A stretch of 64,000 nt of DNA from Candidatus Chlorohelix allophototropha (GTDB lineage: Bacteria; Chloroflexota; Chloroflexia; Chloroheliales; Chloroheliaceae), in contig NZ_CP128399.1 of the NCBI RefSeq assembly GCF_030389965.1, positions 434,001 to 498,000 on the forward strand, in the 5' to 3' direction. Under the pieces are notes generated by a model, which ran no database searches, had not been told where the DNA came from, and worked only from the letters and a program-made list of their open reading frames with translations. Below, piece by piece: positions 41,632 to 48,903 of this stretch. A program made the position numbers and the translations under genes. Each line of letters opens with the position of its first letter. Within the stretch, counting starts at the first letter, position 1.

Positions 41632-42063
41632 CTAATGACCGAGCAAGCGCACGCTGTTGGAACGATCATGCCAATTGAGGGAGGTTGCCTTGAAACGTTT
41701 TGATAGTTCCAAAGCTCTGCGATGCAGCGGTTCAAGTTTGGGGTCTTTGACTTTCCACGCCCCTTTTAGCTGTTGAATAACTAAGTTGCTATCCCCCCAA
41801 ACTCGCACACTATAGGTCGAAGGCTGTTTGCCGGCGCGCTCAATAGTTTCTACCAGATCGGCTAAGCCACTGATAAGGGCGGTATATTCAGCCTGATTGT
41901 TGGTCATATTGTCGCCAAATTGAATCCGGCTTTCTAGTCTTTCTTTGCCTTTGCGGGTTTTAAGGTGATAACTGCCATAGCCCCGACCGGGGTTAGGGTC
42001 TGCCCCACCATCGAAGGTGAGAATGTAATCATATTCATTTATTTCAGCTATGTTATTGCTCAT
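41632..42063 (-). CDS. RNase HI-like protein
   Basis: The 143-residue RNase H fold shows the first three catalytic acidic residues in FDGGADPNPG, NNQAEYTAL and VWGDSNLV. The C-terminal motif usually ends N-x-A-D; here it reads SNSVRLLGH and then stops, so the fourth Asp is replaced by Arg. Start ATG 42063 overlaps the upstream hydrolase stop (ATGA), which fits coupling; the frame to 42105 is not supported. It may degrade RNA-DNA hybrids, or be impaired. Confidence 0.82.
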   Translation of the reverse strand: MSNNIAEINEYDYILTFDGGADPNPGRGYGSYHLKTRKGKERLESRIQFGDNMTNNQAEYTALISGLADLVETIERAGKQPSTYSVRVWGDSNLVIQQLKGAWKVKDPKLEPLHRRALELSKRFKATSLNWHDRSNSVRLLGH

Positions 42064-42797
42064 TTTCGTAAATCCTTGCGCCCTTCCTCTAACTTTTCCA
42101 GCCAATTCAAGGTTAGCTTTACCGCCTGTGCCATATTGTTCTGGTATGCAGCTTGTTGCTCTTCCTCATTAGATATGGCTGGTACAGGTTCGTAACTGTG
42201 ACCCGTTCCCTTTAAAATCTCGTATTGGGCGGGAACAGGCAAATTCCGACAAAATTCATCCAGTTCATCTGGGCTGGAGTAAGGGTCATGCTCGCCTTGT
42301 ATCGCCAGAAAAGGGCTTTTCAGGTTATTAATCCGGTCTTGCCAGTACCATTCGGTGTGTTCAGTATTGTGTAGTATCAACCCAAGACAGCCAAGCCCGC
42401 TGATTTTATCAGCATATTCGGGCTGGAGGGTAAAATGTAAGGCTACTACTCCGCCGACAGATTTCCCGATTAGGTATAAACGTTTTGGCTTGATTTCCTT
42501 ACCGAAGCCTTGCAAGAAGTTATATGCTCCCAGCAGGTCATCCAACCCATCGGTTAATTCATCAAATTTCTGAATGCTATCTTGCTTTACATAACGAAAA
42601 TCAAAGCGTAAGGCAGTCAATCCCAGCTCCGCCGCTCCGGTACACAGGCTTATAGATGGCTCACTATCCTTATTGTATGCGCTACCGTGCAATACAATAA
42701 CGGCAGCATTAGTGGCGCGGCGAGTTGGGGGATGCCAGACACCCTCTAATTCTACCGCACCGCTACCAGATGGGAAAGTTACTGCGATTTGCTCCAT
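42060..42797 (-). CDS. Alpha/beta hydrolase (dienelactone hydrolase-like)
   Basis: The 245-residue protein has oxyanion region VIVLHGSAYNKDSE, nucleophile elbow LIGKSVGGVVALH (Ser in GKSVGG), acid in QGEHDPYSS and His in GTGHSYEP. The substrate is unknown. It overlaps the tyrS stop (TAATG) and the RNase H start (ATGA), so the four genes form a translationally coupled operon. Confidence 0.88.
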   Translation of the reverse strand: MEQIAVTFPSGSGAVELEGVWHPPTRRATNAAVIVLHGSAYNKDSEPSISLCTGAAELGLTALRFDFRYVKQDSIQKFDELTDGLDDLLGAYNFLQGFGKEIKPKRLYLIGKSVGGVVALHFTLQPEYADKISGLGCLGLILHNTEHTEWYWQDRINNLKSPFLAIQGEHDPYSSPDELDEFCRNLPVPAQYEILKGTGHSYEPVPAISNEEEQQAAYQNNMAQAVKLTLNWLEKLEEGRKDLRK

Positions 42798-44833
42798 TAC
42801 AACTTTATCTTCAAAAACTGGCGATTACCGCGCTGAATCACCATGCCATCTTGAAGTGTGATTCGCGCTTTAGCATCGGTTACTTTCTCACCATTTATGC
42901 GAATACCGCCTTCGGTTGCGGTGCGCTGTGCATCTTTATTGCTGGTTGCCAATCCGTTCTTTACTAGTAACTCCTGCAATACCACTTCAGAAATTCCGGT
43001 TTCAGGCGTGAAAATTGGCATATCTTCAGGCATTTCGCGGCGTTGATGCACTTGCTCAAAATCCCGTTGCGCTTCTGTTGCTGCCTCAGTGCCATGATAT
43101 TGCTCTGTCAAGGTGTATGCTAACTTTTTCTTCAGTAGCATGGGATTTTCGCCCGAATCGAGTTGTTGCTTCATAGCGTCAAGGTCATCTAGCGGCACTT
43201 TGGTTAGCACCTCAAAATATTCCAGAATCAACTCGTCGATAGTGCGCAGCATTTTTGCATACATATCTTTGGGCGGTTCACTGATGTAAACCCCATTGCC
43301 CTGACTGGTACTCATCTTGCGACCATCAGTTCCATTGATCATGGCATTACACATAACGCTCTGAGGCGCTTGCCCATAACGCTCTTGCAAGAGACGCCCC
43401 GCCATCATGTTGAACAGTTGGTCGGTGCCGCCTATTTCTACATCAGAATTTATCATCACCGAGTCATAGCCCTGTAATACCGGATAGACGATTTCTTGCA
43501 AGCTGATAGGTTTTCCGGCATCCCAACGTTCGCGGAAGTTATCACGCTCAATCATTTGGGCAACGGTAAAATTGGTCATGAGGATGATGCCCTCTTTAAA
43601 AGGCATATTGCCAAACCAATCGAGATTATTGCGCCATTCTACTTTGCTTTCATCCAGAATCTTGCTGATTTGCTGGCGATAAGTGCGCGTGTTTTCTGCT
43701 ACTTGATCGGGTGTAAGCATGGGGCGGGTGCTGGTTTTATCACTGGCATCCCCGATTTGCCCGGTAAATTGCCCGATTATAAGCACAATCTGGTGTCCTA
43801 AATCCTGAAACTGGCGCAATTTTTGCAGCGTTACGCTACGCCCAATATGGATAAGCGGTCCCGTTGGATCAATGCCTAACTTAACGCGCAACTGTTTACC
43901 ACTGCGCAACTTGGCTTCCAATTCCTCGCGCGTTACAATTTGCGCCACGCCACGAGTCAGCAATTCATCTATTTTATCGCGCTCTCGTTTAAGTCCGGTA
44001 ATAATGGTAGGACTACTCATTTTATCGCTCCTGCTCTCGGTGTGAATTTCCCAAAGGTAAGATGGTTGCTGCCGATTTACCACAAAAGTTTGGCACTGTG
44101 CCCCTAGATGTTCAGTTAGCAGCTTTGCCAACTCTTCCGCAGCTTGGCGCACCTCATTACCGTTTAAACTTTCAAAGCCATCTATCGGGAAGAAAATGTT
44201 CTGGCTATTTTCATCCACGCGGGCTTTACGACCTTGCCGCCAAACCCAACGGCGGGTGCGTACTTCAGCCTCATCTATATATGCGATTTCCCCGGCGGGT
44301 AATTTTTCAATCTGTCCCTCATCGCCATCGGGCGGGGAAAAAACATCATCACTATGGGAAAGCCTTACCGCTAAATCGCCCACCAAACGGTCAAGATCAT
44401 GTCCACCCATCGGAATAGCATAGCGTACCGAAACCGCATTTGCGATATTGATAGCAGGATTAATCGAGGGTAAATCCTGTCCTTTCACCACTCGCCGCAA
44501 CAACGCTTCTGAGGATGATTGGAAATCACCGGGCTTTATGCCTGCTAATCGGAAAGCTTCTCGCCACCGCGCAATATAAGGATGACTGGTAAGATTCGCC
44601 GTATCATCGTTAAAATGGCTGCGTGCTTCCTGCATGGCTTCGAGAAGCAATCGGTAAGATAATTCTTGCACCCGGTTATTATCAAGCCCTGCCGCGATTA
44701 CCCCACCAACAATATAATCAGGAAACTTTTCAAAAACCTGTGCCGCAACGCTGAATCGCATACTTTGCTTATCCTTGTGCAAATAAAATTGACCGCAACC
44801 TATAGAGCTACGGTCTTGGGAAATACTTTTCAA
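42797..44833 (-). CDS. tyrS: Tyrosyl-tRNA synthetase fused to an N-terminal B3/4 tRNA-editing-type domain
   Basis: The 678-residue protein is unusually long. Residues 272-678 are a complete bacterial TyrRS: HIGRS (HIGH motif), GIDPTGPLIHIG, VEIGGTDQLFNMMAGR, KMSTS (KMSKS motif) and a C-terminal S4 domain. Residues about 25-250 are a B3/4 domain (FPDYIVGGVIAAGLDN, ANAVSVRYAIPMGGHDLDR), the editing module of PheRS beta that clears Tyr-tRNA(Phe); stand-alone versions exist. The two are in one open frame with no stop. An internal ribosome site and ATG at 44020 would yield TyrRS alone. It heads the operon tyrS-hydrolase-RNase H-CobW. Confidence 0.9.
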   Translation of the reverse strand: MKSISQDRSSIGCGQFYLHKDKQSMRFSVAAQVFEKFPDYIVGGVIAAGLDNNRVQELSYRLLLEAMQEARSHFNDDTANLTSHPYIARWREAFRLAGIKPGDFQSSSEALLRRVVKGQDLPSINPAINIANAVSVRYAIPMGGHDLDRLVGDLAVRLSHSDDVFSPPDGDEGQIEKLPAGEIAYIDEAEVRTRRWVWRQGRKARVDENSQNIFFPIDGFESLNGNEVRQAAEELAKLLTEHLGAQCQTFVVNRQQPSYLWEIHTESRSDKMSSPTIITGLKRERDKIDELLTRGVAQIVTREELEAKLRSGKQLRVKLGIDPTGPLIHIGRSVTLQKLRQFQDLGHQIVLIIGQFTGQIGDASDKTSTRPMLTPDQVAENTRTYRQQISKILDESKVEWRNNLDWFGNMPFKEGIILMTNFTVAQMIERDNFRERWDAGKPISLQEIVYPVLQGYDSVMINSDVEIGGTDQLFNMMAGRLLQERYGQAPQSVMCNAMINGTDGRKMSTSQGNGVYISEPPKDMYAKMLRTIDELILEYFEVLTKVPLDDLDAMKQQLDSGENPMLLKKKLAYTLTEQYHGTEAATEAQRDFEQVHQRREMPEDMPIFTPETGISEVVLQELLVKNGLATSNKDAQRTATEGGIRINGEKVTDAKARITLQDGMVIQRGNRQFLKIKL
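44018..44032 (-). promoter_or_regulatory. Internal ribosome site and start for stand-alone TyrRS
   Basis: On the minus strand AGGAGCG lies about 5 bases before ATG 44020, inside the fused frame. Initiation here gives a 407-residue protein, the normal TyrRS length. Confidence 0.7.
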
Positions 44834-47413: not shown

Positions 47414-47494
47414 ATGGCAAAAGAAAGCATGCCTGAACAAGCTCTAATAAAAGCACGCCGCTGCCTGAATATAACGGAAGAGTTCATCCTATGA
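47414..47494 (+). CDS. Possible 26-codon leader ORF overlapping the TIR gene
   Basis: ATG 47414 opens a frame ending in TGA at 47492-47494, which overlaps the TIR gene start as ATGA. The product starts MAKESMPEQALIK and ends EEFIL. No clear ribosome site precedes it; the internal ATG at codon 6 is an alternative. A TATAAT lies about 50 bases upstream. The rest of the gap 47157-47413 shows nothing else. Confidence 0.3.
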   Translation: MAKESMPEQALIKARRCLNITEEFIL

Positions 47495-48903
47495 CAGCTA
47501 CGGTAATGACGGTGGTAATTTGCGCTCCCGAAGACCAACCCATTCGGGATGAGCTTCTCCAGTTCTTTTCACCCCTTATACGGCAAGGCGATATTTCGGT
47601 TTGGCCCGAGCTTCAATTATTCTCGGATATGGCGCAAGTAAAAAAGCTGCTTTTAGAGAAGGCGCACCAAGCTGACCTACTTGTTTTTATCGTTAGCCCG
47701 GAATTTCTGGATGATGAGTTCTTTTACACTGAACTGATCAAGGGTTTGGTGGATGGTGGTACCTTGCGTATAATTCCCGTAATTCTCAAGGATTGTCTGT
47801 GGTGGGAAACACCCCTTGAAAAACTGAGCGTCTTGCCGAAGGAAGTCAATCAGAAGAAGGGCGAATTATTACCGGATTATTTGGGCAGAAAAACAAAGCG
47901 AGAGCGGGTTTTGTGCCAGGTTGGTCTTGACTTGTTGGTAGTAATCAAAGAGGCGCGAGTCAAGAAAGCGACACAACCGCCACCCCTACTTGCAGAAGCG
48001 GTAACAGAAACCAGACATTTGGATGCTGCCCTACCTTCCGAAGTAGAGGTGAACGAGCGTGTGCATTTGCTGGCGATGTTGCGTACTGAAACTTCCTTGG
48101 GTTTACGGGAATACTTGTCCAATATTGAAAAGCAAGAGGCTTTCGGCATCAAACCGGAGCAAGTGGTAACGCCGGGCAAAGTAGAAATAGAGTATCCCAA
48201 AGATACAGTCGGGCAAGTGTTACCCGTAGAATTATTGGTGCGGGTAAGCAGTAAGGATTTTGAGCTTGAAAAGAGCGAGGAACGAGTAACATTAACTCTA
48301 CAAAAGGATTCTATACCATGCATCTTTCCGCTCAAACCGCTAAAGCTTGGAACTCTTGAAATTAATTTGAAGGTGAGCAGCCTTGAGGAAGCGATGTTCT
48401 TTGAAACAATCCTTACAGCCGAGTGCGTTGTTACGGCGGAAACAGCTAGCTTCACAATAAAAGGAGCGAATAGTATCGGTGTTCTTCCTTCTATCACTCT
48501 CACGGAAGAACCTTTGAAAAAAGCCCACGAAGAAAAGGAGATTCTGGAACCACAATCCGCTAGATATATTTCACCCGCTACTCCACCTCAGTTTGAAATT
48601 CAAAGAGAGGGCAAATGGAAAGAACTGCCCTCCCTATCTCAAAATCCCTTTCCGCGTCCCAGTAGCCCACCGATGCCTATCCGTGCGGCACAAAAGCGCA
48701 GGCCCGTAATTGTAAACACTCTTGCAGCTATGTTTGCTACTTTCCTTGTGGCTGGTTTTTTACTAATAACTGTACTCTCTGGAAGCAATGGGAGCCCACC
48801 ACCGACAAGCGTTCCTTATATTACACCAACAAGAACTGTCCAGATTTCGCCAAGCCCATCAAACACGCCTCTTGTCAGGGCGACTACCACTGCCGGGGGG
48901 TAA
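47491..48903 (+). CDS. TIR-domain protein with C-terminal membrane anchor
   Basis: The 470-residue protein has an N-terminal TIR_2-type domain (1-140): VVICAPEDQPIRDEL, ADLLVFIVSPEFLDDEFFYTEL with a candidate catalytic Glu at residue 81, and RIIPVILKDCLWW. The middle (about 220-330) is predicted beta-rich and unrecognised. A Pro/Ser linker, one membrane helix (about 408-432, LAAMFATFLVAGFLLITVL) and a Thr/Pro/Ser-rich tail follow. Bacterial TIR domains often cleave NAD or sense abortive-infection signals; activity here is not shown. It is divergent from the histidine kinase. Confidence 0.8.
   Translation: MTATVMTVVICAPEDQPIRDELLQFFSPLIRQGDISVWPELQLFSDMAQVKKLLLEKAHQADLLVFIVSPEFLDDEFFYTELIKGLVDGGTLRIIPVILKDCLWWETPLEKLSVLPKEVNQKKGELLPDYLGRKTKRERVLCQVGLDLLVVIKEARVKKATQPPPLLAEAVTETRHLDAALPSEVEVNERVHLLAMLRTETSLGLREYLSNIEKQEAFGIKPEQVVTPGKVEIEYPKDTVGQVLPVELLVRVSSKDFELEKSEERVTLTLQKDSIPCIFPLKPLKLGTLEINLKVSSLEEAMFFETILTAECVVTAETASFTIKGANSIGVLPSITLTEEPLKKAHEEKEILEPQSARYISPATPPQFEIQREGKWKELPSLSQNPFPRPSSPPMPIRAAQKRRPVIVNTLAAMFATFLVAGFLLITVLSGSNGSPPPTSVPYITPTRTVQISPSPSNTPLVRATTTAGG

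What the first reader, a model, noticed from the sequence alone, without database searches (positions are those of the whole stretch)
42797..44833. B3/4 editing domain fused to TyrRS, with an internal start for TyrRS alone
The B3/4 module normally removes Tyr from tRNA(Phe). Here it is joined in frame to the enzyme that makes Tyr-tRNA, and an AGGAGC plus ATG at the junction could give both a 678-residue fusion and a 407-residue TyrRS. This could be dual-product quality control against tyrosine mischarging.
Basis: partly seen in the sequence, partly recalled or inferred. Interest (0 to 1): 0.7.

Follow-up and report, generated by a model that had tools for sequence, protein, structure and literature searches.

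The report
Tyrosine tRNA-charging enzyme with captured proofreader
In this Chloroflexota bacterium and at least 13 related species the enzyme that loads tyrosine onto tRNA is permanently joined to a proofreading-type domain, which is unexpected because this enzyme is thought to need no proofreader; the domain resembles a free-standing corrector of canavanine errors more than the one that removes tyrosine.

Summary
The in-frame fusion is real. One ORF (42797-44761, minus strand; 654 residues from the conserved ATG, not 678) encodes a B3/4 domain and a complete Thermus-type TyrRS. It is the genome's only TyrRS; contig sizes match Ca. Chlorohelix allophototropha L227-S17. It is not a sequencing error: 13 further species in six Chloroflexota families have the same fusion, and the TyrRS halves fit one clade, so one old fusion event is likely. 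The dual-product idea is not supported by conservation: only the window has ATG plus AGGAG at the junction, its nearest sister has a weak GTG, and the other 12 have no credible start. The functional reading needs revision. The B3/4 half is CtdA-like (canavanyl-tRNA deacylase; phmmer 2.5e-24 against 0.009 for PheRS). It lacks the PheRS residues that read tyrosine's hydroxyl (Glu334 is Pro, Gly315 is Trp), while PheT in all 14 genomes keeps its editing residues. A tyrosine-removing B3/4 on TyrRS would destroy its own product, as the engineered Oki chimera was built to do. Best explanation: a captured CtdA-type deacylase that clears tRNA(Tyr) mischarged with a non-tyrosine, such as m-tyrosine or DOPA. 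The activity itself is untested.

The parts
42797..44761 (-). B3/4-TyrRS fusion gene, 654 codons plus TAA, from the conserved ATG
   Evidence: fused orthologues in 13 other species
44054..44761 (-). N-terminal B3/4 domain (CtdA-like), residues 1-236
   Evidence: PF03483; 9f7e/9mkl by sequence and fold, TM 0.80-0.88
44438..44440 (-). Asn108, invariant in 50 B3/4 proteins; aligned to Ec PheT N254 (Tt Asn250)
44396..44413 (-). PMGGHD (residues 117-122); His121 invariant in fused and sister standalone forms, E/D/F in most others including CtdA
44234..44263 (-). VRTRRWVWRQ (167-176); Trp172 and Gln176 lie where PheT has Gly315 and Gly318
44180..44191 (-). FPID (191-194); Pro192 lies where PheT has Glu334
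43982..44044 (-). Flexible linker, residues 240-260 (pLDDT below 50)
   Evidence: variable in length among relatives
44028..44032 (-). AGGAG, possible internal ribosome-binding site
   Evidence: not conserved in relatives
44018..44020 (-). Met248 codon ATG, possible internal start of a 407-residue TyrRS
   Evidence: not conserved
42800..44020 (-). TyrRS half, residues 248-654, Thermus type
   Evidence: TIGR00234 2.6e-106; 1h3e E 8e-88
43838..43849 (-). HIGR (class I HIGH motif)
43463..43486 (-). YPVLQGYD, tyrosine pocket
43304..43318 (-). KMSTS (class I KMSKS motif)

Best explanation
A free-standing CtdA-type B3/4 deacylase was joined once, long ago in Chloroflexota, to the N-terminus of the housekeeping TyrRS. 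The TyrRS half charges tRNA(Tyr). The tethered B3/4 half hydrolyses tRNA(Tyr) carrying an amino acid other than L-tyrosine that TyrRS lets through; the most likely candidates are oxidised aromatics such as meta-tyrosine and DOPA. Shown here: the fusion, its conservation, intact TyrRS motifs, the CtdA-like fold (predicted), and the loss of the tyrosine-recognition residues. Inferred: catalytic activity, tRNA(Tyr) as the tRNA, and the identity of the rejected amino acid.
For: Same fusion in 14 species of six families; the TyrRS halves group together and holding them as one clade gives a better likelihood; one clade is not rejected for the B3/4 halves. Sole TyrRS in 12 of 14 genomes. CtdA is the nearest solved relative by sequence and fold, and CtdA is a proven tRNA deacylase (PMC10018355). 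Residues invariant among the fused forms are enriched around positions aligned to the PheRS editing pocket (11 of 34 positions against 29 of 236 overall, p 6e-4). Pocket signature His121, Arg168, Thr169, Pro192, Asp194 in 28 of 28 fused and sister standalone proteins. Gly315 and Glu334, which read the tyrosine hydroxyl (PMC3275996; PMC9050441), are Trp and Pro. PheT keeps canonical editing residues in all 14 genomes, and DTD is found in 12 of 14, so Tyr-tRNA(Phe) and D-Tyr are covered by other enzymes. E. coli TyrRS has one active site and uses DOPA (PMC9050441), and charges tRNA(Tyr) with m-Tyr in vitro (PMC4066437): a real gap for an editor to fill.
Against: No assay. TyrRS discriminates well against Phe, so need is not proven. 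The relative orientation of the two domains is undetermined (pTM 0.53), so access of the tRNA end to the B3/4 pocket is not shown. The sister standalone forms sit beside a glycosyltransferase-like gene in three of four loci examined, which gives no hint of tRNA(Tyr). The residue mapping to PheT rests on a profile alignment at about 20% identity, not on superposed structures.
Confidence: 0.55

Rival explanations
1. The B3/4 half edits a tRNA other than tRNA(Tyr), for example canavanyl-tRNA(Arg) as CtdA does, and TyrRS is only a carrier or expression partner.
For: CtdA is the closest characterised relative.
Against: Signature residues differ from CtdA: His121 for Glu, Thr169 for Cys, no Arg at 168, no Pro at 192. 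The genome also has a separate standalone B3/4 protein. Fixed linkage to TyrRS over six families is unexplained.
Confidence: 0.17
2. The B3/4 half is a non-catalytic tRNA-binding or regulatory appendage.
For: PheRS pocket residues are partly missing; aaRS often gain non-catalytic domains (general knowledge).
Against: Pocket residues are among the most conserved of the domain; CtdA lacks the same PheRS residues and is catalytic (PMC10018355).
Confidence: 0.15
3. One reading: a PheRS-like editor of Tyr-tRNA(Phe), or of tyrosine in general, with a second TyrRS-only product.
For: Domain superfamily; AGGAG plus ATG at the junction of this one gene.
Against: Loss of Glu334 and Gly315 equivalents; canonical PheT in all 14 genomes; a Tyr editor would hydrolyse Tyr-tRNA(Tyr), as in the Oki 2008 chimera (cited in PMC3275996); internal start not conserved.
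Confidence: 0.08
4. D-Tyr-tRNA(Tyr) deacylase in cis.
For: D-Tyr is a known TyrRS error (general knowledge); DTD was not found in two of 14 genomes (G180, which is 81% complete, and G335).
Against: DTD is present in the other 12 fused genomes.
Confidence: 0.05

Closest known systems
CtdA, canavanyl-tRNA(Arg) deacylase (9f7e, 9mkl; PMC10018355)
   Same: B3/4 fold over the whole domain (TM 0.80-0.88), RRW-x-WRQ core, P-x-G-G turn, lacks PheRS Glu334
   Different: Standalone; tRNA(Arg); Glu at position 121 and CRRWNWRQ instead of His and TRRWVWRQ
PheRS beta-subunit B3/4 editing domain
   Same: Superfamily and the Asn of the pocket
   Different: Sequence E only 0.009; Glu334, Gly315, Gly318 and the Thr354-Ala356 segment are not kept; not attached to PheRS
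[quoted passage not shown]
   Same: B3/4 on a TyrRS
   Different: Artificial, archaeal PheRS module, made to destroy Tyr-tRNA(Tyr); here natural, N-terminal, CtdA-type
Thermus thermophilus TyrRS (1h3e)
   Same: TyrRS half, all motifs
   Different: No B3/4 domain
Editing modules shared by other aaRS and trans-editing proteins: INS of ProRS and YbaK (PMC3973320), DTD-like domain of archaeal ThrRS (PMC7373986)
   Same: Trans-editing protein and cis-editing domain share an origin
   Different: None found for TyrRS in the papers searched

Membership tests
Tyrosyl-tRNA synthetase (TIGR00234) | Full-length match above cut-off | tested here: met
   356 bits against 113.8
Tyrosyl-tRNA synthetase (TIGR00234) | HIGH and KMSKS motifs and tyrosine pocket | tested here: met
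   HIGR, KMSTS, YPVLQGYD
Tyrosyl-tRNA synthetase (TIGR00234) | Charges tRNA(Tyr) | not testable with these tools
   Sole TyrRS of the genome, so it presumably must
B3/4 domain superfamily (PF03483) | Profile match above cut-off | tested here: met
   80.8 bits against 29.3
PheRS-type tyrosine editing site | Glu334 and Gly315/Gly318 equivalents | tested here: not met
   Pro192, Trp172, Gln176 by profile alignment
PheRS-type tyrosine editing site | Part of a PheRS beta subunit | tested here: not met
   Fused to TyrRS; PheT is a separate gene
CtdA canavanyl-tRNA deacylase | Fold and overall sequence similarity | tested here: met
CtdA canavanyl-tRNA deacylase | CtdA-like pocket residues (GGEN, CRRWNWRQ) | tested here: not met
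   GGHD, TRRWVWRQ
CtdA canavanyl-tRNA deacylase | Deacylates canavanyl-tRNA(Arg) | not testable with these tools
   needs assay
Dual-product gene with internal start | SD plus start codon at junction conserved in orthologues | tested here: not met
   One strong and one weak case in 14

The most novel reading that the evidence does not exclude
A natural TyrRS with a cis post-transfer editing domain: the first proofreading tyrosyl-tRNA synthetase, with a B3/4 pocket that spares tyrosine and clears a non-tyrosine amino acid (for example m-Tyr or DOPA) from tRNA(Tyr).
Probability: 0.5. Interest if true: 0.8.

Novelty: new variant of a known kind. Interest (0 to 1): 0.6.

Why it matters
TyrRS is taken to need no proofreading domain; E. 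coli TyrRS is described as having only one active site (PMC9050441), yet it accepts DOPA and, in vitro, m-Tyr (PMC4066437). A fixed natural fusion suggests that in some lineages these or similar errors cost enough to keep an editor in place. It gives a directly testable protein, a natural counterpart to the engineered Oki chimera, and a B3/4 subfamily whose substrate is unknown and must exclude the cognate Tyr-tRNA(Tyr).

Tried and rejected
Sequencing error or frameshift: rejected, 13 other species have the fusion. Fusion as a spare second TyrRS: rejected for 12 of 14 genomes. Fusion compensating for lost PheRS editing: rejected, PheT pocket canonical in all 14. Fusion replacing DTD: rejected for 12 of 14. 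Conserved internal start: rejected. Operon clue from sister standalone B3/4 genes: only a glycosyltransferase neighbour, no help. The one genome-contig scan returned a single standalone relative. A Pfam-accession text search gave no papers. Distribution outside Chloroflexota could not be tested.

Full report
What is there. The minus strand of 42797-44833 is one open frame. Pfam and NCBIfam find a B3/4 domain followed by a complete tyrosyl-tRNA synthetase. Relatives begin at the equivalent of ATG 44759-44761, so the protein most likely has 654 residues. The source genome has contigs of 2.961 and 2.453 Mb among five, which match the two chromosomes published for Ca. Chlorohelix allophototropha L227-S17 (PMC10972752); the name is inferred from this size match.

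It is fixed and old. A search of relatives and then of 158 genomes of the class and 400 of the phylum found the same in-frame fusion in 14 species: all five of the window's family (f1), one of f5, one of f15, one of f44, four of f52 and two of f53. Families f44, f52 and f53 belong to one order of 13 sampled genomes, seven of them fused. Of the 400 phylum genomes 379 have a TyrRS match, and nine of these are fused. In 12 of the 14 the fusion is the only TyrRS; G003 and G004 have a further unfused one. The TyrRS halves group together with 98% support, apart from one very divergent unfused copy of G003 on a long branch; holding them as one clade gives a higher likelihood. For the B3/4 halves one clade is not rejected (p-AU 0.26). 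Their nearest relatives are standalone B3/4 proteins of family f7 and allies, and f7's own unfused TyrRS lies in the sister clade. One fusion event is the simplest reading.

The internal start. The window has AGGAG, seven bases, ATG at the junction. Ten of 264 internal ATGs in the window's long ORFs have an SD-like match this long. In the nearest fused relative (L027) there is a GTG with a weak site; the other 12 fused genes have no convincing site. In f44, f52 and f53 the domains are joined by a short linker. A second product is therefore at most a local feature.

What kind of B3/4. Against solved structures the domain matches CtdA, the canavanyl-tRNA(Arg) deacylase, at 2.5e-24, and PheRS only at 0.009; the profile search agrees. 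The AlphaFold model (pLDDT 96.6) is closest to CtdA, TM 0.80-0.88, then to PheRS. In PheRS, Glu334 and Gly315 read the para-hydroxyl of tyrosine (PMC3275996; PMC9050441). By profile alignment these are Pro192 and Trp172 here, and the Thr354-Ala356 segment is missing. Asn108 is invariant in all 50 B3/4 proteins aligned. His121, Arg168, Thr169, Pro192 and Asp194 are invariant in the 14 fused and 14 sister standalone proteins, and mostly different in the other 22. PheT in all 14 fused genomes keeps the canonical editing residues, and DTD is found in 12 of 14.

How it probably works. The TyrRS half has HIGR, KMSTS and the tyrosine pocket intact and is of Thermus type. The model shows two formed domains and a disordered linker at 240-260; their relative position is not determined. 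A domain that hydrolysed Tyr-tRNA(Tyr) would cancel the synthetase, which is what the Oki chimera was built to do (PMC3275996). Loss of the tyrosine-reading residues fits a domain that spares Tyr. E. coli TyrRS has a single active site and uses DOPA (PMC9050441), and it charges tRNA(Tyr) with m-Tyr in vitro (PMC4066437). I therefore propose a captured CtdA-type deacylase that clears such errors in cis. Activity, tRNA and amino acid are inferred, not shown.

Novelty. Sharing of editing modules between synthetases and free-standing proteins is a known kind of thing; a TyrRS with one was not found in the nine paper searches made. I rate it a new variant of a known kind. Domain-architecture databases and genomes outside Chloroflexota were not searchable here.

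Noticed in passing
G000 contig 2, 1382930-1383619 minus (L173:3428-4129): A second, standalone B3/4 gene lies just upstream of, and on the same strand as, ORFs that look by eye like hrcA, grpE and dnaJ (heat-shock operon). Its branch is very long (1.97) in the B3/4 tree.
   Followed up: partly
L172:3584-6025 (G008): The fused gene of G008 runs on for about 100 residues after the TyrRS S4 domain, with no Pfam match there.
   Followed up: partly
L108 (G003) and L093 (G004): Two family members carry a second, unfused TyrRS; the G003 copy is highly divergent (branch 1.83).
   Followed up: partly
L162, L163, L165: Standalone B3/4 genes closest to the fused domain (family f7) sit next to a similar glycosyltransferase-like ORF in three of four loci examined (Pfam-tested in L162 only).
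   Followed up: partly
window 41632-42797: Downstream of the fusion lie an alpha/beta hydrolase (start codon overlapping the fusion's stop) and an RNase H-like (RVT_3) protein; the RNase H-like ORF also lies close downstream in G001 and G002, the hydrolase in G001.
   Followed up: partly
window 47491-48903: ORF of 470 residues whose N-terminus looks by eye like a TIR-type domain, with a hydrophobic stretch near the C-terminus.
   Followed up: no
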